Assembly: GCA_027487485.1 (NCBI GenBank)
Contig: JAIYDN010000067.1
Span: 124,001-188,000, forward strand
Source: Planctomycetaceae bacterium
Lineage (GTDB): Bacteria; Planctomycetota; Planctomycetia; Pirellulales; Pirellulaceae
Length of the DNA stretch: 64,000 nucleotides
Direction of reading: 5' to 3'
Both the position numbers and the translations under genes were made by a program. A model generated the notes under the pieces. The model was not told the DNA's origin. It saw only the letters and a program-made list of their open reading frames with translations, and made no database searches. Below, piece after piece: positions 4,204 to 16,050 of the stretch. Position 1 is the first letter of the stretch. Every line of letters starts with the position of its first letter.

Positions 4204-4518
4204 AGTCCGATTCCCTTTGGCAGAATTCAGGCTTGATGGAGTTTATAGCCCGCAGTTTTGGTGTAATCGGATTAATCGTCAGACACACTTCAGTCAAAAG
4301 AACCCTCGCGACCGGTAAACTTTAACATTTTGGAGATCCTTCCAAGGATCTGAAAAATCCCAAGGATCGCATATGAAGTGCACTCGGTGAGGCCTTCCAA
4401 ACGATGCAAAGTCGTTGCATTTCAAAGGAAAAACCGACATTCGGTTCGGCATTAAGAACGAGAGATGGCAAAAGCAGGCTTGATAGACCGGGGTTGTCTG
4501 GTGTAGATTACGTGCTCT
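4204..4518. other. Intergenic region upstream of the secretin
   Basis: No coding region is supported in these 315 bases, which lie between the secretin start (minus strand) and the tRNA gene (plus strand). The only obvious structure is a perfect 8-bp inverted repeat, AGATCCTT and AAGGATCT with a 2-base loop, at 4334-4351. The promoter of the secretin operon must lie here, but I cannot place it. Confidence 0.5.
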
Positions 4519-4600
4519 GGAGGATAGCCGAATGGTTAGGAACCTGATTCGAAATCAGGCGCCGGGAAACCGGTTGAGGGTTCGAATCCCTTGTCCTCCG
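4519..4600 (+). tRNA. tRNA-Ser (anticodon CGA)
   Basis: The acceptor arms GGAGGAT and GTCCTCC pair with one T-G wobble. The anticodon stem CCTGA/TCAGG carries the loop TTCGAAA, giving anticodon CGA. A long variable arm (GCCGG, GAAA, CCGGT) is typical of class II serine tRNAs, and the T arm contains TTCGAAT. CCA is not encoded. The gene is the attachment site of the integrative element: its last 61 bases plus two more are repeated at 15988-16050, so the tRNA stays intact after integration. Confidence 0.95.
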
Positions 4601-6017
4601 CTACGGAACAGAGTTGCAAGCCATCGCAAAAAGCCGCATTTTCGCTCAGAAAGTCGCGGCTTTTTTCGTTTTCAATCTCGACTTCGTTTTCGCCCGATTC
4701 GCAATAGCTCGCAATCCCAAGAACGGAGCACGCACCCTGTTTGGTAGCAGAAATGGTAGCAGGAATGGTAGCAAGTTTTGGGACCGAGTCTGTCGTCCCC
4801 GTCGCCCGGAGCAATTGCGGAATAGAGGTAAGTTCGCCGGCTGAGTCGATCGCTGCGGACTGAGCCCCCTCCAGAAGGTGACCGTAGGTGTCGAGTGTGA
4901 GCGTAATGGTAGAGTGTCGCATTACGGCTTGAATGATCTTGGGTTGAACCCCCCGAATAGCTAGCCATGCCCCGCAAGTGTGGCGGAGCGAGTGGAAATC
5001 GAGCGCGTAGCCTGATTCATTTGTCGGCTTGAGGAAATCGCTCAGTTCTCGTTTCGCCCTCTCGGTTGGGTCTTTCTTGCATTCTGCTAGCCAAAGCGTT
5101 CTGGCGTCGCTTAGATCGGCTTGCAGCATTTTGGCGGCTTCTTTTTTGGGCAGATTGAAAACCAGGGTCGTCGGTAGTTTCGTCGCAAGGAATGGCCGTA
5201 GATCATTCGCCAATTCGCGTTCTATGTACTGGTATGCTGTTTGGCGATTCTTGGTAGTACCACTATCAGCCCTGACGTGTGGTTGCTTGTCATCCAGATT
5301 GAATGAGCCACGTTTGAGACTTCGCAGTTCCCCAGCTCTCAAGCCGGTTTGGATCGCGACACGATAGGCCAAACATCGTTCTTGGGCAGTCATTCCGAAA
5401 CGCTCGCCGGCTTTCATCGCTCCTTGTATAAGCCACTGCCACTCGGTAGGAAGTAACATTCTGCGATTCAAACGACGGTCACTATCCGGGTCCGGTCTTT
5501 CAATTGTTTCCAAAGGGTCTAGCCGGATTTTCCTGTGAATGCGCAGCCAAGAGGTGAAATGCTTGCACGCTCCAATCATGGCACCGATCGTCCTCGAGCT
5601 TTTTCCCGCATCTGCCAGATGAACAATATATCTAGTCATCATGTCCGCGTTGATTTCTCCGACGGTCTGAATCTTTGCGTATGCTGCAAACGCTCGGATG
5701 TAGTTCAGTTGTCCGACTACGTTGATTTTGGCTTTCGCGCCCGTGTATCGAGACTCAAGCCTAGGCGTGAAGTCCTTCAAATGATCTTCAATCGTTCGTT
5801 TGGCTTCCGTTTGGTATCGCTCTTGATCAGGATCGATAACACCATGTTGCCTTAGCGCAGCATCGGAAACGATCTTTGCTGCTATCTGCTTTGCAACAGA
5901 CTTTTCAGAGGAACCGGTTGAGGTCCATCTTTGCTTAGATTGACCGTTCCTAAGTTTTTCCCAGTATCGAACGTAGTAGGGTGAGCCCTCTTTCGACGAT
6001 CGCTTGAAAAGCTTCAT
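4536..6017 (-). CDS. Tyrosine recombinase (integrase) of the island
   Basis: This is a phage-type site-specific recombinase of 493 residues. An SAM-like core-binding region lies at about 110-200. The catalytic domain shows the first Arg in TGLRAGELRSL, the HSLRHT box (HxxR), a later His in MRHSTITLTLDTYGH and the nucleophile Tyr at about residue 378. The ATG at 6017 is chosen because AGGAGG lies about nine bases upstream; a longer reading to 6071 lacks such a site. The last ~21 residues are encoded by the att core inside the tRNA gene, and the TAA stop is in host tRNA sequence. In the excised circle the frame would stay open and gain 74 residues (see 15762-15989). Confidence 0.93.
   Translation of the reverse strand: MKLFKRSSKEGSPYYVRYWEKLRNGQSKQRWTSTGSSEKSVAKQIAAKIVSDAALRQHGVIDPDQERYQTEAKRTIEDHLKDFTPRLESRYTGAKAKINVVGQLNYIRAFAAYAKIQTVGEINADMMTRYIVHLADAGKSSRTIGAMIGACKHFTSWLRIHRKIRLDPLETIERPDPDSDRRLNRRMLLPTEWQWLIQGAMKAGERFGMTAQERCLAYRVAIQTGLRAGELRSLKRGSFNLDDKQPHVRADSGTTKNRQTAYQYIERELANDLRPFLATKLPTTLVFNLPKKEAAKMLQADLSDARTLWLAECKKDPTERAKRELSDFLKPTNESGYALDFHSLRHTCGAWLAIRGVQPKIIQAVMRHSTITLTLDTYGHLLEGAQSAAIDSAGELTSIPQLLRATGTTDSVPKLATIPATISATKQGACSVLGIASYCESGENEVEIENEKSRDFLSENAAFCDGLQLCSVAEDKGFEPSTGFPAPDFESGS
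4540..4602 (+). repeat. attL: 63-bp core of the integrative element
   Basis: This segment is identical over 63 bases to 15988-16050. It runs from the 5' side of the anticodon stem of tRNA-Ser to two bases past its 3' end. The identity stops sharply on both sides (g versus t on the left, a versus c on the right), as expected for a crossover core made by a tyrosine recombinase. Confidence 0.93.
4628..4666 (+). terminator. Terminator after tRNA-Ser, supplied by the element
   Basis: A 10-bp stem, AAAAAGCCGC and GCGGCTTTTT, is followed by a T run and lies 28 bases past the tRNA. The sequence is inside the element, so it replaces the original host terminator (16052-16080), which was displaced to the far end. 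It also lies within the integrase coding sequence on the opposite strand. Confidence 0.6.
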
Positions 6018-6282
6018 GTTGAACAACCTCCTATCCTGGTTGTGACCCATCAGAAAGAAAACATGCGGCAACCGTGATAGGTTTCGGCTTTCGGGTGCCC
6101 CCTAGCCGCATGTTTGAATCATTGTCGATCTATCGGAAGTACGTCAAGCGTCCATGATGCAAGCCGGCTCGGCGTTTGGGTGCCTAGCTTTTAAGCAGCT
6201 GTTTTTTTGTGCAGTAAAAATAGTTGTAAGAATGTCGCACAAACTCCCGCCCAAGGGGTTCGGCTTGTATGTCATCAGCGAA

Positions 6283-6501
6283 CTAGGTTGCTAGCGTAAC
6301 TTTGTTTTGATCGACATAGGCGTCTAGGTCCGCCGGGTCAAATCGAATACTCTTACCCATCAAAACGAATGGGATTTTCCCGGAGTTCCTGAGCGTCCAA
6401 AGATGCCTCTCGGATACTCTCAAACGGTTTGCGGCCTCTCTGGTCGTGCAGAGTGGTCGGTCTGGTCGTGTGGCGGTGTTTTCGGTTTGCGGCTTGTTCA
6501 T
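6283..6501 (-). CDS. Small HTH protein, excisionase-like
   Basis: This 72-residue protein has a MerR/excisionase-type winged helix: LCTTREAANRLRVSERHLW, then GKIPFVLMGKSIRFDPADLDAYV. Such proteins bind DNA near att sites and steer recombination toward excision, or act as small activators of integrase genes. The ATG at 6501 is preceded by AGGG at a suitable distance; a longer frame to 6663 has no good start. The gene sits about 265 bases upstream of the integrase in the same orientation, the usual position for a recombination directionality factor. A role in excision is inferred from family and position. Confidence 0.75.
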   Translation of the reverse strand: MNKPQTENTATRPDRPLCTTREAANRLRVSERHLWTLRNSGKIPFVLMGKSIRFDPADLDAYVDQNKVTLAT

Positions 6502-6560
6502 GTCTGAATCCCTAGTTGGGGGTGAAATTCGGATCTCGCTCCAAATGCGTTGATCGATGG

Positions 6561-6743
6561 GCAAGTTATGAACGACGCAACCGTAACGTAAGAAAGGTTG
6601 CGCGACTGGAAACGATTTTTTTCCTTGACCCCTTCTAAGATGAACGAATGCACAGTCCGGCAACCGCCAGTTTTTTTGAGAATGCCGGCCATACCAACGC
6701 GCAATCTAAGCTTACGTTGCGCGTTTCTTGGTTCGCTTGAGCC
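6561..6743. repeat. ~183-bp direct repeat, left copy
   Basis: This block is nearly identical to 14590-14773; I see about a dozen differences by eye. It contains a 9-bp inverted repeat (AACGCGCAA at 6696-6704, TTGCGCGTT at 6717-6725) around AAGCTTACG, and a second short palindromic pair, CGCAACC and GGTTGCG, near its start. Each copy is directly followed on the right by an array of degenerate long repeats. The two copies bracket the whole replication and tail gene block. Confidence 0.85.
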
Positions 6744-7210
6744 CTGCCCATGCGGATCTTGCCTCGGAGTGAATCGTCCCTAGCTTCGTTTGATGCGACT
6801 GGTCAAGGTTTGGCCGGAGCGGATTGTCCGGGAACGTCCTGACGCATGCAAACCGAGTCGCTCGAGGGTTGTCTGTGCGGATCGTCCCCGGAGAGGATCG
6901 CCCCAGAGTGAATCGTCCCCAGCTTCGTTTGACACGACTGGTCAAGGTTTACCCGGAGAGGATAGTCCAGGTCCGTTTGGGAACGTCCTGACGCCTGCTA
7001 TCCGAGTCGCTCGAGGGGCGCCTGTGCGGATCCCAGCCCGGAGACGATCGCCGGCGGAGCGGATTGTCCCTTGCTTCGTTTGACACGACTGGTCAAGGTT
7101 GTGCATGAGCGGATTGTCTGGGAACCTAGTGACGCATGCTAACGGAGTTCCTCGAGCCTTATCCTGTGCGGATCCCAACTCGGAGACGATCGCCGGCGGA
7201 AGTGAAATCT
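6744..7210. repeat. Degenerate long tandem repeat array, left
   Basis: About three units of 138-152 bases are recognised by the anchor CGACTGGTCAAGG near 6796, 6934 and 7086. Shared blocks around it include GTCCGGGAACGTCCTGACGC, CGAGTCGCTCGAGG and CCGGAGACGATCGCC. The units vary by substitutions and by insertion of half-unit blocks. Several short frames cross the array, but they encode only the repeat itself and I do not consider them genes. The function is unknown. Confidence 0.85.
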
Positions 7211-7214
7211 AAGC

Positions 7215-7979
7215 TTACGATTCGCGTTTCGTCTGATCGTTGTTTTTTCTGAGGGCTCGCTCTCTGGTCTTTAATGCTGCGGTGTGCCCCTGATACCAAT
7301 CGATTACCTCATGCCGAAAGTAGCATTTAGCGCCCTTCCTGATCATGCTCTCATCCACAATAGCCGGCTTTTTCGTGCTGTTCAACGCGTCCAATTCGTC
7401 CTGTGTCCGGTATGTTGGTCGGTTTCGCTGTCGTTTGCTTTCGGTCTTGTCTCGCCCGAGGTTGGGCAAAGAGTTCACGCCTGCGATTTCATAACGCAAA
7501 ACCAACGATCTAGCGCGTTCCAATTCTTCGACAATCGCGGGGATGTATTGCCATGAACGGGGACCAAATTCGACTGGATACCCTTCGTTTGAAAACTCGA
7601 CGTCATCAGGCGGCGGCGGTACCGCGGATAAGGCTTTCACCTCGGTTTCATGCCATTGCTTGCATCGCCAAAGTAACTCCATTGCATAGTCAATAACGTC
7701 CCGTCGTTCCTCCACGATTCCAGGCAATTTGATTTTCGGAATGTCAAACCGTGCAAGCTGCAAAGCCGGCTTGAAGGTTTTCAAAAGATCATTCAAAGCA
7801 GCAAAATTTGAAGCACGTACTTTCATTCCTAGCGTCGTTGCTGCCAACCTTGATTTCGCCCACGAGAAAAGCGAGTGAAACCTTGGATCTAATGGTGACG
7901 AGTCCTCGCAGTCGAGCAACTCAGTAATCAAGCCATCGAAGAATTGATTGACGTTATTTGAATTCGAGTCGTCGGACAT
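7215..7979 (-). CDS. Hypothetical protein of the island
   Basis: This is a 254-residue soluble protein without a signal peptide or membrane segment. The N-terminal half is helical (residues 10-110). The centre has a proline patch, VPPPPDDVEF, and the C-terminal ~80 residues are basic, with RKGAKCYFRHEVIDWYQGH, which could be a small winged-helix or DNA-binding region. The start is an ATG at 7979, eleven bases after the stop of the preceding gene, with AAGG upstream. The stop lies just before the left repeat array and shares a short motif with the 183-bp block. I do not recognise the family. Confidence 0.6.
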   Translation of the reverse strand: MSDDSNSNNVNQFFDGLITELLDCEDSSPLDPRFHSLFSWAKSRLAATTLGMKVRASNFAALNDLLKTFKPALQLARFDIPKIKLPGIVEERRDVIDYAMELLWRCKQWHETEVKALSAVPPPPDDVEFSNEGYPVEFGPRSWQYIPAIVEELERARSLVLRYEIAGVNSLPNLGRDKTESKRQRNRPTYRTQDELDALNSTKKPAIVDESMIRKGAKCYFRHEVIDWYQGHTAALKTRERALRKNNDQTKRES

Positions 7980-7989
7980 TCGCAGGGGA

Positions 7990-8508
7990 CTACCTTACAA
8001 ATACGTCGCTCGAGAGTGTGAACATCCGAAAGAGCAGATGGGATTTCTTGCGTTGTATCTTGATCGGAATGCACCTAGGATCCTCCGCAAATGTTCGGTC
8101 GTCGCGTGCCTCGTCAGCCTCCCAGCTTTCGAGATTGATCCCATACGTTGAGAGGGTTTTGGTCGTCGTGTCGAGCAAGTAAACGTCCCAGATTGGTTCC
8201 TCGGTGTCGCGAGTCTGATTCCCGGTGTCGTATATGTCGGCCTCCAATTGCCGGCGGCTCGGTGGCGTTGGGGATGCCACGCGATAGAGAAGATACGATT
8301 GATCGTGAAGAATCTTGACAGGGATGCATCTTGGGAATTGCCATTCCAACGCATCCCAGATTTCATCGGCGTTGTAATCTTCTTCATTGATCGCCATAGG
8401 TACAACTGTTTTTCGGATCGGATCGAGCAAGAAAACATCCCAAATTGGTTGTCGCCAATCTCGGTTTTCAATAGTCGATACGGTTAGCGCTGCATTTTCG
8501 TTTGCCAT
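7990..8508 (-). CDS. Hypothetical protein with an internal duplication
   Basis: The protein has 172 residues and is built from two copies of a ~60-residue unit. The first starts at PIWDVFLLDPIRKTVVPMAI and ends at SYLLYRV. The second starts at PIWDVYLLDTTTKTLSTYGI and ends at SHLLFRM. Conserved positions include IWDV, LLD, RCIP and IKI. The start is set at the ATG at 8508, which has AAAAGG upstream; a longer frame from a TTG at 8583 is possible. It precedes the 7215-7979 gene by 11 bases, suggesting an operon. I do not recognise the domain. The duplication is visible directly in the sequence. Confidence 0.6.
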   Translation of the reverse strand: MANENAALTVSTIENRDWRQPIWDVFLLDPIRKTVVPMAINEEDYNADEIWDALEWQFPRCIPVKILHDQSYLLYRVASPTPPSRRQLEADIYDTGNQTRDTEEPIWDVYLLDTTTKTLSTYGINLESWEADEARDDRTFAEDPRCIPIKIQRKKSHLLFRMFTLSSDVFVR

Positions 8509-8944
8509 GAGAAAAACCTTTTCCCGTTTAGAATCATCCATCAGAACCGCCAACGGGTTCATAACGATACCGATGGTAGCCAATCAGGCGGGGGGAATGT
8601 TCTGGCCGAAACTCAAGAGAGCGAAAAAACGCTGTTTAAGATTCTGCAAATGCAGAAGTGCAAGTAGAATTGCCATTGTTCGGACTTTCGCTCGTAAATT
8701 GGAAGTCTGGGCCAAGTCCTCAGCGATGCTAGTAACATCGTGTGAGGACACTTTTCGAACCACCAAATCTAGCAAGTGCCGGAACAACTCGCAATACGTT
8801 GTCTTTGGCCTGTAGGAGATTTGCCCGCGATTTAGCCGGCAATACTTGAGAGGTTAGGGGCTGCCCGACGGACTTGGGCGGGACGCAGATAATCCCAAAT
8901 CCGTCGAGCTTCGTTGGGCGCTGATCAGGCGAGCCCCCTAACTA

Positions 8945-8986
8945 CTATGGCGAATTGCCATAGGAATGAAATCGGGTAATACCCGA
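8945..8986 (-). terminator. Paired hairpins after the possible tail-chaperone gene
   Basis: Two adjacent hairpins follow the stop of the 9002-9481 gene: TCGGGT/ACCCGA with a 3-base loop (8972-8986), and CTATGGC/GCCATAG with a 5-base loop (8945-8963). On the minus strand the first is followed by TTTCATT, so it may be a weak intrinsic terminator. An 8-bp inverted pair, GTTAGGGG and CCCCTAAC, encloses the wider region 8853-8941. Confidence 0.4.
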
Positions 8987-9001
8987 CGATGAGAATTCAG
9001 C

Positions 9002-9481
9002 TTAGCGTATCGCTTCCGAATTCGGCCAATTTTCGGTTATGAATCGGTCTAGCTTCGCCATTCCTTCACTGACAGTCCGGTCAAGTAGTCCGTCGTCGAA
9101 CTTTTGTTGGATCGATAACTCAGCGAGTGTTTCCGCTTTCTTCTGAGTGTCCAATACTTGGCGCATGAGTTCGCGTTTCTTAGCCGGCAAGAACGAAAGA
9201 GCGCTCTCGTTAAATGCCTCTCTTGCGGCTTGTAATGAGTCCCCGCCCAATGCGGCCCCGAATGCCTCAAGTGTGATCCCCTTGGCGTTGGCTTGTTCGC
9301 TACAAATCGCAAACAATACGTCGGCCAATTGGCAAACGTCATCGTGTAGCCCTGCGAAAGAGTCCTTGTCTCCTAGGATCTTGCTTAAATCGATCGAGAA
9401 TTGATCTCGTACCCGTCTTATTGCGTGAACCGTTATTGATACGTCCCACGTTGTCCCGGTCGAATCGATGAATGATGCCAT
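9002..9481 (-). CDS. Possible phage tail assembly chaperone-like protein
   Basis: This 159-residue soluble protein starts at an ATG at 9481 with AGGG upstream. The N-terminal part (WDVSITVHAIRRVRDQFSID) and the helical remainder, rich in Ala, Glu and Lys, look like the small proteins encoded beside tape-measure genes in tailed phages. It lies 86 bases downstream of the tape-measure-like gene in the same orientation. The assignment rests mainly on size and position, because sequence similarity in this group is weak. It could equally be an unrelated island protein. Confidence 0.45.
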   Translation of the reverse strand: MASFIDSTGTTWDVSITVHAIRRVRDQFSIDLSKILGDKDSFAGLHDDVCQLADVLFAICSEQANAKGITLEAFGAALGGDSLQAAREAFNESALSFLPAKKRELMRQVLDTQKKAETLAELSIQQKFDDGLLDRTVSEGMAKLDRFITENWPNSEAIR

Positions 9482-9567
9482 TGGTTTTAGTGTCCCTGAG
9501 TGTAAAGGTTAAAAAGCTTGGTTGATTGGTTGGTTGTGTGCCTGGTTTGTTTTGCCGGCTTGAATGA

Positions 9568-11229
9568 TCAAGGTCCCAGCGGAAGGTTGTAGGTGTTTTG
9601 CTGGGCTTTTTGCATCATCTGGTTTTGGCGCTCGAGCAATTCATTAGACTTTTTGAGCTGTTGCACCACGGCAGGGAGTCCAGTTTGTTCGCGGCCTGAT
9701 CCAAACTTGTCGGCAGCAAACCCGCTGCCCGTTCCTACTGCGGCGGTCCCTGCGAATAGTTGGTTAATGTCTTTGACCTGGGGTAAACGGAGCATTTCCC
9801 GATCTTGATTTAGCCGGGCCCTGTTTGCTTCTTTGGTGATCCCCAACATCGCCTCTCGCAGGTCGGTACTTGCTTTTTCGAGAGCATTTGAAAACCCTGA
9901 CTTGCCTTGCTTCGCGTCGTCGAGTCGCTTTTGCTTCGTTGCTTCGTTCTCGGCGTTGCGTTGTTGTATGGTCGCCTCACGTGCAGCCCTTGCCCCTTCT
10001 AAGTCACTCACGCGGTCTTTGTTGCGTTTGGCTAGGTCGTCGTCTAGTTGCTTCGCCCCGTCATCGTAGTTGATCGAAAAATCGGCAAGGCTTTTGAGAT
10101 AAAGCATCCCCTTCGCGATTTCCGTAACCGTTGTATCCCAAGCGCTTAGCAAGCTGTTTGAAACGACGGTGACGACATCGCTGATAACACCCCAAACACC
10201 AGTCCAAATGTTCTTTAACGTCGTGCCCGCATCGCTCCAAGCATTTAGCATTCGCGTTGTCGTGTCGAGCCAAATCCCATAGATGGTTTGCGTCCCAGTG
10301 CGGAAAGCCACCTCAAGCGAGAGCATTAGGACTTTGCCGGCGGCTGCAAACTGCCCCGTCATCAGAGCTTTCTTGATCGAATCTAGGACCGGCAAAACAA
10401 AATCGAGAAGATCGCCAAACCCGTCAGATAGGTATTTGAGCATTGCGGACCCCGCCCCACTGTAATAGAGGATCGCCCCGCCCAATGCAGCCACGCCGGC
10501 AATCACTAAACCGATCGGAGACAATAGAAACCCGATCGCGCCTGCCATTACACCAAACACACTCGCAGCAAAACCCGCCACACCGATAACGGCCCCAATT
10601 GCGGCGGAGACGATAGCGGCGCCGGCCCCCAGTGCAATCAACGCCCCGCCCACAACGGCGAGCCCGGCGGCGACTTGTGCGGCGATAACGATTAAGTTTC
10701 GGTTTTGGTCGATCCACAATCGGAACGCGTTCACATTACGTGTGACCCATTGGGCAAGAGCGGTAAGACCTGGGGCAAGTGCCCCACCGATAACATTCTG
10801 GACCGCTTCCATAGCGTCCCCCATCACGCCAAGTGCAGCATTGAGTTTATAGGCTGATACAACGTCCTTGGTCGAGATAAACCCTCCAAACCCGATCTTG
10901 TTTAATGCCTCGGCGCTCATCCCGGTTTTCACCATGGCTTCCCGCATGAGCTTCCCTGCATCGAGGAATTGACTCACGGCAGATTTGAGCCCGACGACAA
11001 CGATAGATCCGGCGATAGCTGTCTTGAGGTTTAAGACCGATCCCGAAAACGTATTGAGAACCCCTTGAGCCTGCCCCAGTCCTGAGGCGGTTTGTTTACC
11101 GATCTGGTTTGCGATGCCTGAAACGGCCTTGAGGGACTTTTGCACCTTGGCTAGCCCTTGTTCGAATACGCCCTGCTTCGTTGAGATTTCGACATAGGCT
11201 TGCCCTGCGCGTACTGCATTTGCTGACAT
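9568..11229 (-). CDS. Phage tail tape-measure-like protein
   Basis: The 553-residue protein starts at an ATG at 11229 with GGAGA six bases upstream. It opens with YVEISTKQGVFEQGLAKVQKSL, typical of tape-measure N-termini. A long Gly/Ala-rich hydrophobic region lies at about residues 180-260 (VAAGLAVVGGALIALGAGAA and GFLLSPIGLVIAGVAALGG). A charged coiled-coil at about 400-470 is followed by a Gln-rich C-terminal helix. Tape-measure proteins set tail length and occupy the tail lumen. This one is short for the family, which would predict a short tail if functional. No other virion gene except a possible chaperone is present, which is unusual. Confidence 0.7.
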   Translation of the reverse strand: MSANAVRAGQAYVEISTKQGVFEQGLAKVQKSLKAVSGIANQIGKQTASGLGQAQGVLNTFSGSVLNLKTAIAGSIVVVGLKSAVSQFLDAGKLMREAMVKTGMSAEALNKIGFGGFISTKDVVSAYKLNAALGVMGDAMEAVQNVIGGALAPGLTALAQWVTRNVNAFRLWIDQNRNLIVIAAQVAAGLAVVGGALIALGAGAAIVSAAIGAVIGVAGFAASVFGVMAGAIGFLLSPIGLVIAGVAALGGAILYYSGAGSAMLKYLSDGFGDLLDFVLPVLDSIKKALMTGQFAAAGKVLMLSLEVAFRTGTQTIYGIWLDTTTRMLNAWSDAGTTLKNIWTGVWGVISDVVTVVSNSLLSAWDTTVTEIAKGMLYLKSLADFSINYDDGAKQLDDDLAKRNKDRVSDLEGARAAREATIQQRNAENEATKQKRLDDAKQGKSGFSNALEKASTDLREAMLGITKEANRARLNQDREMLRLPQVKDINQLFAGTAAVGTGSGFAADKFGSGREQTGLPAVVQQLKKSNELLERQNQMMQKAQQNTYNLPLGP

Positions 11230-11320
11230 TTAGAGTCTCCATTCTGGGCAGGTTTCCGCCCGTTCATTTCGTCTTTTGTGGGGTAGTAACGGGACCACGA
11301 ACGGGACCACGCGTGAAGAA

Positions 11321-11363
11321 CACCAATGTTTTCATTGGTGGTGCGAGTCTATGTAAGACTCGC
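11321..11363. promoter_or_regulatory. Two adjacent perfect 8-bp hairpins
   Basis: CACCAATG-TTTT-CATTGGTG (11321-11340) is followed two bases later by GCGAGTCT-ATGTA-AGACTCGC (11343-11363). They lie about 90-130 bases upstream of the tape-measure gene on its strand. No long T run follows on either strand, so an RNA regulatory element or a protein site is as likely as a terminator. Confidence 0.5.
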
Positions 11364-11567
11364 AATCGTTGGTTTTTGCCGATAGTACGGCGTTGCTTTT
11401 CGTCGTTTGCCTTGGCTGCGCAGTTGTCGCAAGGTTGGTTTCGTGCGAGCGGAATAGGCTTTAGGTTGTCGGTCTGGTTGTGTCTCCATGCAATCTTTTA
11501 GCGTTGGGTCCACCCAATTCCCGGAGAGTCCATCGACAACAATCATCCTTATGAGAATCGCTTTCAT
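11349..11567 (-). CDS. Small basic hypothetical protein (weak)
   Basis: This frame of 72 codons starts with MKAILIRMIVVDGLSGNW after a purine-rich GAGAAAAG. The C-terminal half is very basic (RTKPTLRQLRSQGKRRKATP). The stop falls inside the second hairpin. The hydrophobic N-terminus and basic tail are compatible with a small island protein, but nothing confirms expression and I do not recognise it. Confidence 0.3.
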   Translation of the reverse strand: MKAILIRMIVVDGLSGNWVDPTLKDCMETQPDRQPKAYSARTKPTLRQLRSQGKRRKATPYYRQKPTIASLT

Positions 11568-11780
11568 TTTGCTTTTCTCGGATTCCGAATAGCAGAGGCG
11601 CGGCGCTAGCATGGTTTTGTTGTACGTCCTTGTTTTCTAAGTTGGTTTGGATTCGAATTTGCAAAGGAAAAACTTTTTGTATTGCCAATGGAAAATGTTC
11701 ATGGGTCCTTCCTGGGGGTTTTTTCAAAACCAACCCCAAAGGGAACAGTCGCAGTCCAATACAGACTTTCTTTTTTGAGC

Positions 11781-13127
11781 CTACGTTTTTGAAAAATCAT
11801 CGAAGTAGCCGCCCTGGTAGCTTGGGGTTTCCGGCTTGTCTCCGAATGAACAACGGTTGGAATCAAACGCCAAATCGATTGTCCCAACTTCACCTTGGCG
11901 AGCTTTGGCGATGATCAATTCAGTCTCCGGCTTTCCGCGTTCACGATGTAGAAACCATACGTTGTCGGCGTCTTGTTCAATCGCCCCCGAGTCTCGCAGG
12001 TGATCAAGTCGCGGCCTGTCCGTTTCGGCCCCGCGGCTTAATTGACACAAGCAAACCACCGGCTTGCCAAGCTGTTTTGTGAGCGTCGCTAGATCGTTTG
12101 AAATCTGGCTGATTCGCTCATATGGTTTTGCGTGTTGGTTCGTTCCCCTGATCAATCCGAGATAGTCAATTACGAGAAGGTCCAAACCATACTTTGAAGC
12201 GTGCATGCGGGCTTTGGCTTGGATCTGCCCCACGGTAACTGCACCTTGCGCCCAAAAACGCCACGGCCAAGACTTCATTGCGCTACGTGCTACGTCTAGC
12301 CGGTTTCGCTGCGTTGGGGAAAGCTTGCCGGCCCGTATATCGGAAATCGGTATTCCTGTCTCACGCGAGAGTAGCCTATGCCCGATTTGTTCACTGGTCA
12401 TTTCCAACGAACAGAACAATACCCGCTTCCCAACGCGTGCGGCGCGTGTTGCCAGTTCCAGCCCCATCGCGGTCTTGCCCACGCTTGGGCGAGCGGCAAG
12501 TATTGTCAGCTCTGAAAATAGACCGCCGGTAATGTTGTCAATTGATTGAATGCCGGTCGGCAATCCTATCGTTTGACCGTTCCGCATAGCCGCATCGATG
12601 CTTGCTATGGTTTCGTTGCAGACGGTTTCAACTGTTTGAAGATCGCTTTCCCGTGCTTCAATCGATTGAAGAATTCTGTTTGTGGCACTGTCGGCAATGA
12701 GTCGCGGGTCAGGATCTAGCCTGTCGGTTTCGCCAAGAATGTTAGCGGCGGCATTTCGAATCCTTCGGACGCTTGCCCACTTAGCAATCTCCATGCTGTA
12801 GTAGGTGGCGTGTTGCGGCAATCCTTCATCGGCAAGCCTTGCGACTGTGGCTACTCCTCCAATCAGGTCTAGCAATCCTGCTTTTCGCATCGCCACGAAC
12901 AAAAACGTATCGTCTTGGATCGGTTCGCCGGCAAGACCCAACTTGACGACAAAATCAAATAGCCGGCCATACCGCTCGTCTGAAAAATCATCGCCACAAA
13001 CCGTATCGACGACATCCAGTACGCAAACAGGACTTTTGAACATTGCCCCAATCAAGCCTTGTTCAGCCTGTATCGTGTTGGCTTGGTGTTCATTGCGGTG
13101 TTGATAAAACTCCGGACGATCAATCAT
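11781..13127 (-). CDS. DnaB-family replicative helicase
   Basis: This is a 448-residue hexameric helicase homologue. The N-terminal DnaB domain is at about residues 15-110, and the RecA-like domain at about 165-430 has Walker A ARPSVGKTA, FCSLEM, Walker B LLVIDYLGLI and the sensor region VVCLCQLSRGAE. It would unwind DNA for replication of the excised element. The start ATG overlaps the stop of the upstream replication protein gene (ATGA), implying translational coupling. Length is close to cellular DnaB. Possession of its own helicase and loader-like gene suggests autonomous replication after excision, as in satellites and small temperate phages. Confidence 0.92.
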   Translation of the reverse strand: MIDRPEFYQHRNEHQANTIQAEQGLIGAMFKSPVCVLDVVDTVCGDDFSDERYGRLFDFVVKLGLAGEPIQDDTFLFVAMRKAGLLDLIGGVATVARLADEGLPQHATYYSMEIAKWASVRRIRNAAANILGETDRLDPDPRLIADSATNRILQSIEARESDLQTVETVCNETIASIDAAMRNGQTIGLPTGIQSIDNITGGLFSELTILAARPSVGKTAMGLELATRAARVGKRVLFCSLEMTSEQIGHRLLSRETGIPISDIRAGKLSPTQRNRLDVARSAMKSWPWRFWAQGAVTVGQIQAKARMHASKYGLDLLVIDYLGLIRGTNQHAKPYERISQISNDLATLTKQLGKPVVCLCQLSRGAETDRPRLDHLRDSGAIEQDADNVWFLHRERGKPETELIIAKARQGEVGTIDLAFDSNRCSFGDKPETPSYQGGYFDDFSKT

Positions 13128-13894
13128 TGAGCTAACTTCCTGTACATTGGGTGGTCGTCATCCTGTCTAGTCTTTTGGTTGTCCGCTTCACGGATGCCAA
13201 CCCAGCCTTGTTCAACGGTGTGATCGATAGCGGCGATAGATCGCTTCACTCCCCACTTTGCAAATTTCGTAAGTTGCTTTTCAACCTGGGTCTCAGTGAG
13301 TGGTTTTTTGATTTCGGCACGATGACTACACCATTGCGACCAAACTGCCCTAAACTCATTCGTCTCGAGCGTCCTTGGTAACTCCACTTTGGAAGGTTCA
13401 AACCTGTCTTTAGGTTTAGGAACAGGTATAGGTATAGAAGCAATGCCCTTGCATTCCGTTTGCATTCCGTTTGCGTTCTGCTTCTGTTCCATTTTTTGGA
13501 CTGGATCTATTGATTGAGTTCCAAAAATTGGAACGGAAATGGGCTCGGACTCGTCGCATTGCCTGTCGTCTAGGTGTAAAAACTGCTCAGGTATCGAGAC
13601 AGAAAACCGCCCTGGTCGTCCTTTTCCGCCGGCCTCGTAGAGCAACCACCCTTCTGACTGCGCTTTAGAAATCGCGGTGACAAGCGTTTGTTTGCTCGAG
13701 AACCCGCATAGCGGTGCCAACTGATCGAGATACCACTTGGCCGGCTCGGTATATCGCTTCGAGTCCTCTTGCATTGCGACAACAGCAAGCAACCAACAAA
13801 CCGACGGCCCCAGCTCCTGCGCTGCAGCTGTTTTGGTTAATAGCCGGATGTACTTGTGTGCGTAGTACTTTTCACGTTGTTGGTATTGAGCCAT
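13124..13894 (-). CDS. Phage-type replication protein (DnaD/helicase-loader-like)
   Basis: This 256-residue protein has an N-terminal winged-helix segment at about residues 15-105 (ELGPSVCWLLAVVAMQED, LAPLCGFSSKQTLVTAI, GWLLYEAGGKGRPGRFSV). A low-complexity linker follows, and a C-terminal helical region at about 175-245 (EFRAVWSQWCSHRAEIKK) resembles the DNA-binding region of phage replication organisers. The gene ends in an ATGA overlap with the helicase, the usual arrangement for initiator or loader plus helicase pairs. The ATG at 13894 was chosen; a GTG at 13912 is also in frame. The specific role, origin binding or helicase loading, is inferred. Confidence 0.68.
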   Translation of the reverse strand: MAQYQQREKYYAHKYIRLLTKTAAAQELGPSVCWLLAVVAMQEDSKRYTEPAKWYLDQLAPLCGFSSKQTLVTAISKAQSEGWLLYEAGGKGRPGRFSVSIPEQFLHLDDRQCDESEPISVPIFGTQSIDPVQKMEQKQNANGMQTECKGIASIPIPVPKPKDRFEPSKVELPRTLETNEFRAVWSQWCSHRAEIKKPLTETQVEKQLTKFAKWGVKRSIAAIDHTVEQGWVGIREADNQKTRQDDDHPMYRKLAQ

Positions 13895-13899
13895 GAGAG

Positions 13900-14139
13900 C
13901 TAATCCACGCACCCAGACAACTCTAGTTCTTTGGCGATTTCTAAACGGCGTTTATCTGCATCGCGCGTCGCTTGCTTGCATGTCTTGCAGAAGCATGGCG
14001 GAACGTGACTATGTTGTGACCGCAAAGCAACAGGCGGCTGGGCATGATGTATGTTGCGATTCCCAGAAACCCCGGCGACATCCGGACGTTTATACTTCTT
14101 GTCGATTGTCTTTTGCGGCGATACTGCTAAACTTGTCAT
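13900..14139 (-). CDS. Small Cys-containing hypothetical protein
   Basis: The predicted product has 79 residues, with ATG at 14139 preceded by AGGA at six bases. Near the C-terminus it carries a CFCKTCKQ motif and charged helices (RDADKRRLEIAKELELSG). The cysteines could bind zinc, as in small phage regulators, but only one pair is present. It ends five bases before the ATG of the replication protein, consistent with the same operon. I do not recognise the family. Confidence 0.45.
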   Translation of the reverse strand: MTSLAVSPQKTIDKKYKRPDVAGVSGNRNIHHAQPPVALRSQHSHVPPCFCKTCKQATRDADKRRLEIAKELELSGCVD

Positions 14140-14226
14140 GGTAGTCCTGTGGCGGTGGTAGTTATCGGGACAAATGCGAGATAGCTGAGCAATGACTGTG
14201 GCGGTTGGGCTCAGCTTTTTTCGTTT

Positions 14227-14433
14227 CTATACGGTTTGCGTTTGGGCTTGATTTTGAATTACGGAATTGTCGACATAGTCGAGCAACCATTGCCCCCGAA
14301 AAAATCGCTGACGTCCTTGTTGTGCAAACTTTAGCTTGCCTGATTTGCATGCGTATCCTAGGGTCATTCGGCCAATCTTCAGGATCGCTTTAACGTCCTC
14401 AGGTCTATAAATTGCGTTTGGATCTATTTGCAT
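14227..14433 (-). CDS. AlpA/excisionase-type HTH protein
   Basis: This 68-residue protein has a helix-turn-helix core: YRPEDVKAILKIGRMTLGYA followed by GKLKFAQQGRQRFFRGQWLLDYV. AlpA-like proteins are small regulators of integrase expression or excision in satellites such as P4-type elements. The start at 14433 has the strong site AAAGGAG. It is the first gene of the leftward cluster, just inside the right repeat block, so it may control early transcription. It is a second small HTH protein beside the one at 6283-6501. Confidence 0.72.
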   Translation of the reverse strand: MQIDPNAIYRPEDVKAILKIGRMTLGYACKSGKLKFAQQGRQRFFRGQWLLDYVDNSVIQNQAQTQTV

Positions 14434-14589
14434 TTCGTGCTCCTTTTACGGTTTGAATCATGCTCCACTTTTCCCACCATAGCCGACCGATGCCAACGGA
14501 CGCCCTCCGGTGGTTACAAATACGATTGCAACAAATCGCAGCGTGTCCCGATTCCTTAGTGCTCTACGCAAATAACGTCGAGCGATTAA

Positions 14590-14773
14590 GCAAGTTATGA
14601 ACGACGCAACAGTAGCGTAAGAATTGTTGCGCGACTGGAAACGATTTTTTTCCCTTGACCCCTTCTAAGACCAACGAATGCACAGTCCGGCAACCGCCAG
14701 TTTTTTTGAGAATGCCGGCCATACCAACGCGCAACCTAAGCTTACGTTGCGCGTTTCTCGATTCCCTCGAGCC
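14590..14773. repeat. ~184-bp direct repeat, right copy
   Basis: This is the counterpart of 6561-6743 in the same orientation, and it again contains a palindromic pair around AAGCTTACG and is followed on the right by the long repeat array. The duplicated block plus array forms a paired boundary around the island's core genes. Confidence 0.85.
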
Positions 14774-15820
14774 ATATCCGCTCGGATCTTGCCTCGGAGA
14801 GGAACGTCCCCGGAGAGGATTGTTTCCAGCTTGGTTTGACGGTCCCGTTCAAGATTGTCCAGGTCCGTTTGGGAACATCGTGACGCCTGCAAACCGAGTC
14901 CCTTGAGGGTTGTCTGTTCGGATCCCAGCCCGGAGACTATCGCCGGCGGAGTGAATCGTCCCCAGTTTGGTTTGACTCGACTGGTCAAGGTTGTGCATGA
15001 GTGGATTGTCCGGGTCCGTTTGGGAAAGTCCTAACGCATGCCCCCCGGTCCCTCGAGCCTAGTCTGTGCGGATCGTCCCCGGAGAGGATCGTCCGGGAAC
15101 ATCGTGACGCCTGCAAACCAAGTCGCTTGAGTTTCGTCTGTGCGGATCCCAGCTCGGAGACGATCGCCGGCGGAGTGAATCGTCCCCAGTTCCGTTTGAT
15201 GCGACTGGTCAAGGTTTGCCCGGAGCGGATAGTCCAGGTCCGTTTGGGAACGTCCTGACGCCTGCTATCCGAGTCGCTCGAGGGTCGCCTGAGCGGATCC
15301 CAGCCCGGAGACGATCGCCGGCGGAGCGGATCGTCCCTAGCTTCGTTTGACACGACTGGTCAAGGTTGCGCATGAGTGGATTGTCTGGGAACCTAGTGAC
15401 GCATGCTAACTGAGTCGCTCGAGGGTTGTCTGTGCGGATCCCAGCCCGGAGACGATCGCCGGCGGAGTGAATCGTCCCCAGTTCCGTTTGATGCGACTGG
15501 TCAAGGGTTTGGCCGGAGCGGATTGTCCGGGAACATCCTGACGCATGCAAACCGAGTCGCTCGAGGGTTGTCTGTGCGGATCGTCCCCGGAGAGGATCGT
15601 CCGGGAACATCGTGACGCCTACAAACCGAGTCGCTTGAGTTTCGCCTGTGTGGATCCCAACTCGGAGACGATCGCCCCAGAGCGGATCGTCCCCAGCTTC
15701 GTTTGATGCGACTGGTCAAGGTTTAGCCGGAGCGGATTGTCTGGGAACCTAGTGACGCATGCTAACGGAGTTCCTCGAGCCTTGCCTGTGCGGATCGCAG
15801 CTCGGAGACGATCGTCCCTA
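14774..15820. repeat. Degenerate long tandem repeat array, right
   Basis: About six units are recognised by the anchor CGACTGGTCAAGG (clear near 14978, 15202, 15353, 15494 and 15708, degenerate near 14840). Spacing is 141-224 bases, consistent with a ~145-base unit plus ~72-base partial insertions. The same sub-blocks occur as in the left array. The last unit contains the 3' end and stop codon of the orphan coding segment at 15762-15989, so the units look like repeated copies of that gene end and its downstream flank. It is not CRISPR: units are long, degenerate and without unique spacers. Confidence 0.85.
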
Positions 15821-15989
15821 ATACCCCCAATGTACATTCATCGTTGGCGGCGGTCTGGTCAATCAGTCTTTCGAGTTCTAGCCGGCTTTCTATGATCGCC
15901 CTGATTGCAACTGAAAATTTGCCCTCAAGTAGCACATTTAAAGCAGGTTTTCTGGTACCCTTGTTTTTGTTGCCTTTTTGAGCGTTTGA
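15762..15989 (-). other. Orphan 3' coding segment completing the integrase in the circle
   Basis: Reading leftward out of the right att core, the frame that encodes PAPDFESGS in the integrase stays open for 74 more codons, to a TAG at 15762-15764. The product looks like protein: KPALNVLLEGKFSVAIRAI, then ESRLELERLIDQ, ending SAQARLEELR, which is mostly helical. There is no start codon of its own: on the right side of the core the same frame meets TGA immediately upstream. When the element circularises, attP joins the integrase frame to this segment without a frameshift, giving a protein of about 567 residues. In the integrated state it is silent as part of the integrase. Confidence 0.8.
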
Positions 15990-16050
15990 ACCTGATTCGA
16001 AATCAGGCGCCGGGAAACCGGTTGAGGGTTCGAATCCCTTGTCCTCCGCT
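15988..16050 (+). repeat. attR: 63-bp core (partial tRNA-Ser copy)
   Basis: This is a perfect copy of 4540-4602. It lacks the acceptor 5' strand and the D arm, so it is not a functional tRNA. The host terminator follows at once. Confidence 0.93.

What the first reader, a model, noticed from the sequence alone, without database searches (positions are those of the whole stretch)
4536..15989. Integrase frame crosses the att core; 74-codon C-terminal segment is orphaned by integration
At attL the integrase frame runs through the 63-bp core and stops at a TAA in host tRNA sequence. At attR the same frame leaves the core and stays open for 74 codons to a TAG at 15762, with no start of its own and a TGA just outside the core on the host side. 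In the excised circle the two parts join in frame, giving about 567 residues instead of 493. The segment reads like helical protein. Established parallels: SSV-type archaeal integrases are split at attP, and in mycobacteriophage BPs integration changes the C-terminus of the repressor. Here the catalytic Tyr (about residue 378) is kept in both forms, so a C-terminal switch, for example of stability or directionality, is an inference.
Basis: partly seen in the sequence, partly recalled or inferred. Interest (0 to 1): 0.87.

Follow-up and report, generated by a model that had tools for sequence, protein, structure and literature searches.

The report
Integrase that trims itself on integration
A small mobile element in a planctomycete bacterium carries its insertion site inside its own integrase gene, so that inserting into the chromosome cuts a small helical domain off the enzyme; related elements in other planctomycetes are built the same way.

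Summary
A 63-bp core (4540-4602, 15988-16050) lies inside the integrase frame. In the circle the 493-residue integrase gains 74 residues (567 in all); integration leaves those codons at attR. This is not one accident. A second island in the same genome (in tmRNA, with an integrase that BLASTP cannot align to this one) and one in a congener (tRNA-Cys) carry a homologous segment, also cut off in the integrase frame. In other planctomycetes a different helical mini-domain ('WP') sits at the same place. In 24 of 25 islands with both ends paired (this one included), domain and integrase share one frame through the core; about ten pairs rest on short cores, and the exception is out of frame. A phage contig with a 127-bp terminal repeat carries the uncut 573-residue gene with a tRNA-like stretch inside. 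Residues are conserved, but synonymous sites are near saturation, so selection is only moderately supported. A review says self-disrupting recombinases occur only in archaea (PMC8371274, passages). What the lost domain does is not shown; I favour an integration-state switch. An in-frame GTG lies at 15935.

The parts
4519..4601 (+). host tRNA-Ser(cga), its 3' part supplied by the island (attL)
   Evidence: ARAGORN; Rfam tRNA; attB rebuilt in a script also gives it
4540..4602 (.). att core copy 1 (attL), inside the integrase frame
   Evidence: 63 identical bp
4536..6017 (-). tyrosine integrase, integrated (short) form, 493 aa; Tyr at residue 378
   Evidence: PF00589 E 1.5e-13; R227, H342, R345 and Y378 invariant in 12 aligned sequences, (catalytic roles recalled)
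4604..4665 (.). stretch between catalytic domain and core: codes for integrase on minus and reads as a terminator-like inverted repeat after the tRNA on plus
   Evidence: my reading of the sequence; not listed by the consensus scan, which allows loops of 3-8 only
15988..16050 (.). att core copy 2 (attR)
15762..15986 (-). orphaned C-terminal segment of the integrase, 74 codons plus TAG ('X' segment)
   Evidence: homologues; helical hairpin
15933..15935 (-). in-frame GTG that could start a separate 57-aa protein
6283..6663 (-). HTH_17 protein, excisionase/AlpA-like
   Evidence: PF12728 E 5.2e-12; phrog_66 (excisionase and transcriptional regulator) E 8.4e-10
6047..6112 (-). int-alpA RNA upstream of int
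   Evidence: RF02996, 43.7 bits against a gathering score of 35.8
9568..11229 (-). tape-measure-like protein of the island
   Evidence: phrog_28 E 1.6e-13
11781..13127 (-). DnaB-like helicase of the island
   Evidence: PF03796 E 9.1e-66
13124..13912 (-). O-like replication initiator of the island
   Evidence: phrog_678 E 7.8e-14
14227..14433 (-). second small HTH_17 protein
   Evidence: PF12728 E 1e-6

Best explanation
The island's attP core lies inside its integrase gene. The circle encodes the full enzyme: DNA-binding and catalytic part, a long linker whose DNA carries a terminator-like repeat and the tRNA 3' part, then a small two-helix domain. Integration reconstitutes the tRNA and at the same time moves the domain's codons to attR; the chromosomal gene then ends at a stop supplied by the host tRNA and makes a shorter enzyme with the catalytic part intact. 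Excision would restore the long gene. I think it most likely that the enzyme thereby reports its own state: the long form is the one selected for integrating the circle, and the short form made in the integrated state is weaker at integration or biased to excision with the AlpA/Xis-like protein. Shown here: the anatomy, the shared frame in many islands, residue conservation, and an uncut gene in a phage contig with a terminal repeat. Inferred: that both proteins are made and that they differ in activity.
For: In-frame join and intact attB. Homologous segment cut off in the integrase frame at tmRNA in the same genome and at tRNA-Cys in a congener, with the Ser and tmRNA integrases not alignable by BLASTP (E 0.26). 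Int-side search: 10 of 13 loci followed up, 3 of 3 (one the same island as L063) and 3 of 12 have the frame open for 46-87 codons past the far core. Domain-side search: 8 of 8 pairs scored in phase. Antisense tRNA T-loops are read in all three phases by different islands. 36 of 55 domain regions have the antisense T-loop motif upstream, all 36 inside the domain's own open frame, against 3 in downstream controls. Uncut 573-residue gene in a contig with a 127-bp exact terminal repeat. No in-frame ATG/GTG between T-loop and domain in 19 of 36. Replacement change below synonymous change: WP pooled pS 0.67, pN 0.38; X pairs pS 0.71-0.74, pN 0.40-0.47.
Against: No activity, expression or read data. 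Not every relative has the arrangement: the viral integrase in L306 (58% identical to the L148 integrase, residues 1-404) stops 14 codons after the match, where its contig also ends, and 19 of 22 viral tails lack a T-loop motif. L066 has the domain in another frame; L142 is ambiguous. Of the 12 loci, 8 showed no second core and G105b only a 21-bp repeat with a 23-codon frame; one of two far copies at G044 closes after 8 codons. Six domain regions with a tRNA had no integrase frame of 250 codons there. Selection is only moderately supported: at codons not used to collect the WP stretches pS is 0.68 and pN 0.48, and in 237 pairs chosen for low pS the two are equal (0.42, 0.43). G024 has X as a separate ORF. 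G021's integrase is 78% identical to the window's, yet its lost segment is of the WP type.
Confidence: 0.58

Rival explanations
1. By-product of gene layout. The domain is needed for integrase to work in the free element, but its loss after integration has no regulatory role: the core simply sits inside the gene, and the short form is as good or is hardly made.
For: The stretch between catalytic part and domain is long and varies between relatives, so a core could be housed there without harm. Conservation alone only suggests that the long form matters in the circle.
Against: The arrangement recurs with an unalignable integrase, different tRNAs, different frames and at least two different lost domains, which looks like repeated retention rather than one frozen layout.
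Confidence: 0.22
2. The segment is a separate small protein, translated from its own start downstream of int in the circle; integration changes its expression, not the integrase itself.
For: Stand-alone X ORF overlapping a tyrosine recombinase gene by 4 nt in G024; in-frame GTG at 15935; L066 with the domain in another frame; 17 of 36 WP segments have some in-frame ATG or GTG between T-loop and domain.
Against: 24 of 25 pairs in one frame, where a free start predicts about one third; no in-frame ATG/GTG in 19 of 36 (TTG not counted); only TTG in the G023 segment.
Confidence: 0.12
3. A degradation tag, as in integration-dependent immunity: the long form is unstable and integration removes the tag.
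For: Mycobacterial precedent for repressors (PMC8092301 and PMC9934374, passages).
Against: What recurs is a helical domain; the three X ends differ and none ends in AA (EELR, RMGD, IGGI), whereas the host tmRNA tag ends LALAA.
Confidence: 0.04
4. Chance open frame without function.
For: Other frames past the core are sometimes open for 40-73 codons; the codon evidence is moderate.
Against: Homologous domains and the shared frame.
Confidence: 0.03

Closest known systems
SSV-type ('suicidal') archaeal integrases: SSV1, pTN3, pT26-2
   Same: attP inside the integrase gene; integration interrupts the gene (PMC8371274, passages).
   Different: There the cut separates an N-terminal part from the part with the catalytic domain (PMC8371274, passages). 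Here catalysis stays with the N-terminal part and a C-terminal piece of about 46-87 residues is lost. The Pfam match is PF00589, not the Phage_integr_3 domain that the review names for the suicidal families. The hosts are bacteria.
Integration-dependent immunity of mycobacteriophage BPs and M. abscessus prophages
   Same: attP inside a phage gene; the prophage product is shorter at the C-terminus because of a stop at attL, with the 3' remnant left at attR (passages).
   Different: The gene is the repressor and the lost part typically carries an ssrA-like tag; here it is the integrase and the lost part is a helical domain.
Ordinary tRNA-targeting tyrosine integrases of islands and phages
   Same: Core in the tRNA 3' part, tRNA restored at attL, AlpA/Xis-like partner.
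   Different: In the lambda paradigm the gene stays intact after integration (PMC8371274, passages).

Membership tests
Tyrosine recombinase (Phage_integrase) | PF00589 match with Arg, His-x-x-Arg and Tyr | tested here: met
   E 1.5e-13; invariant R227, H342, R345, Y378 in 12 sequences, (motif recalled)
tRNA-borne integrative element | direct-repeat core matching the tRNA 3' part, intact tRNA at attL | tested here: met
SSV-type suicidal integrase | attP within the integrase coding sequence | tested here: met
   in-frame join for the window; natural uncut gene in L148
SSV-type suicidal integrase | integration separates the N-terminal part from the catalytic domain | tested here: not met
   catalytic residues precede the core
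SSV-type suicidal integrase | Phage_integr_3 domain (named in PMC8371274) | tested here: not met
   not among the Pfam matches at E <= 0.1
Integration-dependent immunity (BPs type) | attP inside the repressor gene | tested here: not met
   the gene is the integrase
Integration-dependent immunity (BPs type) | lost C-terminus carries an ssrA-like tag (AA end) | tested here: not met
   ends EELR, RMGD and IGGI in the three X cases
State-dependent integrase switch | long and short forms differ in activity | not testable with these tools
   needs recombination assays

The most novel reading that the evidence does not exclude
Planctomycetota mobile elements use a bacterial form of the suicidal integrase: the enzyme writes its own integration state into its sequence. 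The full-length form made by the free element integrates; integration amputates a conserved helical module, and the short form left in the chromosome can no longer integrate but can excise with its Xis partner. At least two different modules (X and WP) were recruited for the same job, with the tRNA core serving as a joint that is read in any of its three frames.
Probability: 0.4. Interest if true: 0.92.

Novelty: new variant of a known kind. Interest (0 to 1): 0.82.

Why it matters
[quoted passage not shown] If this stands, many elements of a bacterial phylum have a version that keeps catalysis and trades a C-terminal end, giving directionality a direct, testable link to integration state. It also explains many 70-140-codon frames around tRNA fragments in these genomes as lost integrase ends, gives a simple marker for attR sites, and suggests a two-form integrase as a tool.

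Tried and rejected
Chance open frame: rejected because of homologues and the shared frame. ssrA-like tag: the X ends do not fit. Known domain: two X and three WP segments match no Pfam family at E <= 0.1; the window's X matches no PHROG at E <= 0.01; one X and two WP segments match no NCBIfam at E <= 0.1. Foldseek against PDB with the X model gave nothing at E <= 0.001; short helical hairpins match many folds, so no function was drawn. A single-sequence model of the L148 integrase is poor (mean pLDDT 40); its end, modelled as two helices, scores best. tblastn of the L148 integrase and of a WP query against annotated phages, and of the window integrase against plasmids, found nothing at the limits set. 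In one search, L142 (11-bp exact core, no WP in that frame) and L170 (repeat beyond the integrase stop) are not usable pairs. Five pairs looked out of phase: in L238 and L245 the repeat was elsewhere in the integrase tail, in L254, L270 and L272 the alignment was gapped; all five scored in phase when the far core was aligned to the tRNA.

The 24 of 25 count: window, G000 tmRNA, G023 (L094), G021 (L063), L073, L090, L109, L113, L123, L152, L121, L100, G125, G044, G364, the eight, and L271 in phase; L066 out. Left out: G062 and G078 (open frames, no recognised domain), L226/L142 (ambiguous), L227 (same island as L073). Weak pairs among the 24: the tmRNA core is 22 bp; L100 matches over 25 nt at 92% and L121 over 39 nt at 90%; L271 over 19 bp; L238, L245, L254 and L270 over 17-21 columns with mismatches in three of them, L272 gapped, and there the match may be to a general tRNA T-arm rather than the cognate core. 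G125's WP domain was recognised by eye. In one search the tmRNA row reads 'False' because my core coordinates were one base off; one search repeats it correctly.
Full report
OBSERVATION. The 63-bp repeat is exact (4540-4602, 15988-16050), and a search of the held 7.49-Mb genome found only these two copies. It covers the 3' part of tRNA-Ser(cga). The integrase (PF00589) runs from 6017 through the core and ends at a TAA in the tRNA, 493 residues. At attR the same frame leaves the core and runs 74 codons to TAG at 15762. Joined, it gives 567 residues; joining the host flanks gives an intact tRNA-Ser. One correction: the orphan frame holds a GTG at 15935.

SECOND AND THIRD CASES. Searching 147 genomes with the 74-residue segment found two relatives. 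One lies in the same genome on another contig. There a 22-bp core at contig position 130854 is followed in frame by 'WRRGELNNLQNRR...'; 15.7 kb away an integrase runs through the same core into tmRNA in the same frame. BLASTP does not align that integrase with the window's. A profile of three segments, run on 296 genomes, then found a strong match in congener G023 (E 1.8e-9), where an integrase runs into tRNA-Cys and the far core continues in frame for 87 codons. That search also gave two short matches in G023 and one weak match each in G306 and G328 (E about 0.002); I did not follow these. The other relative, in G024, is a separate 62-residue ORF overlapping the end of a tyrosine recombinase gene by 4 nt. 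These four segments define type X. In 199 genomes drawn from the phylum only this genome had it at E <= 0.001.

WIDER PATTERN, FROM THE INTEGRASE. I fetched 80 loci from public genomes and 52 from viral contigs and scanned 108 of these 132 (all 80, and the first 28 viral ones) for a second core upstream. Thirteen were followed up; other repeats were 12-15 nt or below 83% identity and were not. In ten of the thirteen the integrase frame stays open past the far core for 46-87 codons. Nine of these hold a shared mini-domain (around A-W-P-x-L-P; 'WP'); the tenth is G023 with X. L066 is open for 28 codons in the integrase frame, with the domain in another frame. L142 is ambiguous. L170 has an uncut gene. 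Three loci were read: G021 (the same island as L063), G062 and G125, all open. Of twelve integrases for which I held about 15-50 kb upstream, three showed a far core with the frame open (G044 and G364 with WP, G078 with another tail); G044 also has a second far copy that closes after 8 codons. G105b showed only a 21-bp repeat, and eight no second core.

FROM THE DOMAIN. An alignment of 16 WP segments matched 39 of 48 genomes or records behind integrase loci; several of these supplied rows of that alignment. I fetched 55 regions for hits of that list, mostly from its top plus some in long frames. In 36 an antisense tRNA T-loop motif lies within 260 nt upstream, in all 36 inside the domain's own open frame; a downstream control gave 3 (regions long enough only), and the motif density predicts 0.03 per region. 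In eight regions a tRNA with an integrase-length frame over it was also present, and all eight pairs are in phase, though about half rest on short alignments. In six regions a tRNA was present without such a frame. In all, 24 of 25 pairs with a recognised domain are in phase; without the window, 23 of 24. Different islands read the antisense T-loop in all three phases (0: window, L063, L109; 1: L066, L073, L090, L113, G125; 2: G023, L123), so the match is not forced by a single open frame in tRNA sequence. A sample of 199 genomes across the phylum had WP in 30 at E <= 1e-6, with at most 30 candidates scored per genome. WP was not found in the window's own genome.

THE UNCUT GENE. In viral contig IMGVR_UViG_3300025162_000083 (43,208 bp) the first and last 127 bases are identical, as expected of a circular genome assembled with an overlap. 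Its 573-residue integrase contains a tRNA 3'-half-like stretch and then, in frame, the WP domain; ARAGORN found no tRNA gene at that integrase end. This is the natural counterpart of the joined frame. L170 also has an uncut gene with WP, but no terminal repeat was found. L158 and L160 have uncut genes with a T-loop motif and other tails. Many other viral relatives end without such a site (19 of 22 tails without the motif), so the layout is common but not universal.

SELECTION AND FOLD. Among 64 distinct 27-codon WP stretches the mean over all pairs is pS 0.67, pN 0.38; close pairs by residue identity show e.g. 0.50 and 0.07 (L113/L124), but that choice itself favours low pN. A fairer test used only the 17 codons not named in the collecting pattern: pooled pS 0.68, pN 0.48, pS above pN in 1733 of 2016 pairs; in 237 pairs chosen for low pS the two were equal (0.42, 0.43). 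The three X pairs give pS 0.71-0.74, pN 0.40-0.47 over 47 codons. Synonymous sites are near saturation, so this is moderate, not strong, support for purifying selection. The window's X segment is modelled as a two-helix hairpin (mean pLDDT 83, helices 14-44 and 50-73). The end of the L148 integrase also forms two helices in a model that is otherwise poor.

MECHANISM. Shown: the gene is whole only in the free form; integration removes a recurrent helical domain, keeps catalysis and adds a stop from the host tRNA. Inferred: the long form is the selected form in the circle, and the short form in the chromosome behaves differently. The simplest rival is that the loss is a tolerated by-product. A separate small protein is less likely but not excluded: X stands alone in G024, and 17 of 36 WP segments have some in-frame ATG or GTG between T-loop and domain.

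NOVELTY. [quoted passage not shown] Integration-dependent truncation is known for mycobacterial phage repressors (PMC8092301 and PMC9934374, passages). Ten answered paper searches, of which I saw the listings, and passages of four papers (those three and PMC10865867), showed no bacterial integrase of this kind. The library lacks most subscription papers, so this is not proof. I place it as a new variant of a known kind.

Noticed in passing
window 6047-6112 (-): int-alpA RNA (RF02996) in front of the integrase, next to an AlpA/Xis-like gene.
   Followed up: no
window 6561-7191 and 14590-15814: Repeat units of about 64, 135, 165 and 258 bp shared by both ends of the island; the right-hand set reaches into the end of the orphan segment (copy 15680-15814).
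   Followed up: no
L038:8404-11155 (G024): Two different tyrosine recombinase genes with the X ORF between them, beside tRNA-Gly: X as a separate, probably coupled, protein.
   Followed up: partly
L039 around 10190-10370 (G008:C1): DNA after a tRNA-Ser(cga) encodes a stretch 62% identical to integrase residues 442-493, perhaps an island remnant or the source of the linker.
   Followed up: partly
L288:429-578 and 4411-4460 (G044): Two far copies of the tRNA-Met core; one is followed by an orphan WP segment, the other closes after 8 codons and resembles an integrase tail, suggesting stacked islands.
   Followed up: partly
L275 (G356:C129), 524-codon frame: A frame in a 50-kb genome contig with a T-loop motif inside and a WP end; it may be an uncut gene or a hybrid at a tandem junction.
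   Followed up: no
L121, L152: Integrases that run along the sense strand of tRNA-Leu and tRNA-Arg and still continue in frame into WP past the far core.
   Followed up: yes
L075, L084, L114 (record titles): Contigs titled Proteobacteria, Nealsonbacteria and Flavobacteriaceae carry this integrase type; they are metagenome bins, so misbinning is likely.
   Followed up: no
window 9568-11229: Tape-measure-like gene in an 11.4-kb island with helicase and O-like initiator: perhaps a phage satellite or remnant.
   Followed up: no
G306:C300:17606-17731, G328:C13:1104-1241: Weak matches (E about 0.002) to the X profile outside the genus.
   Followed up: no
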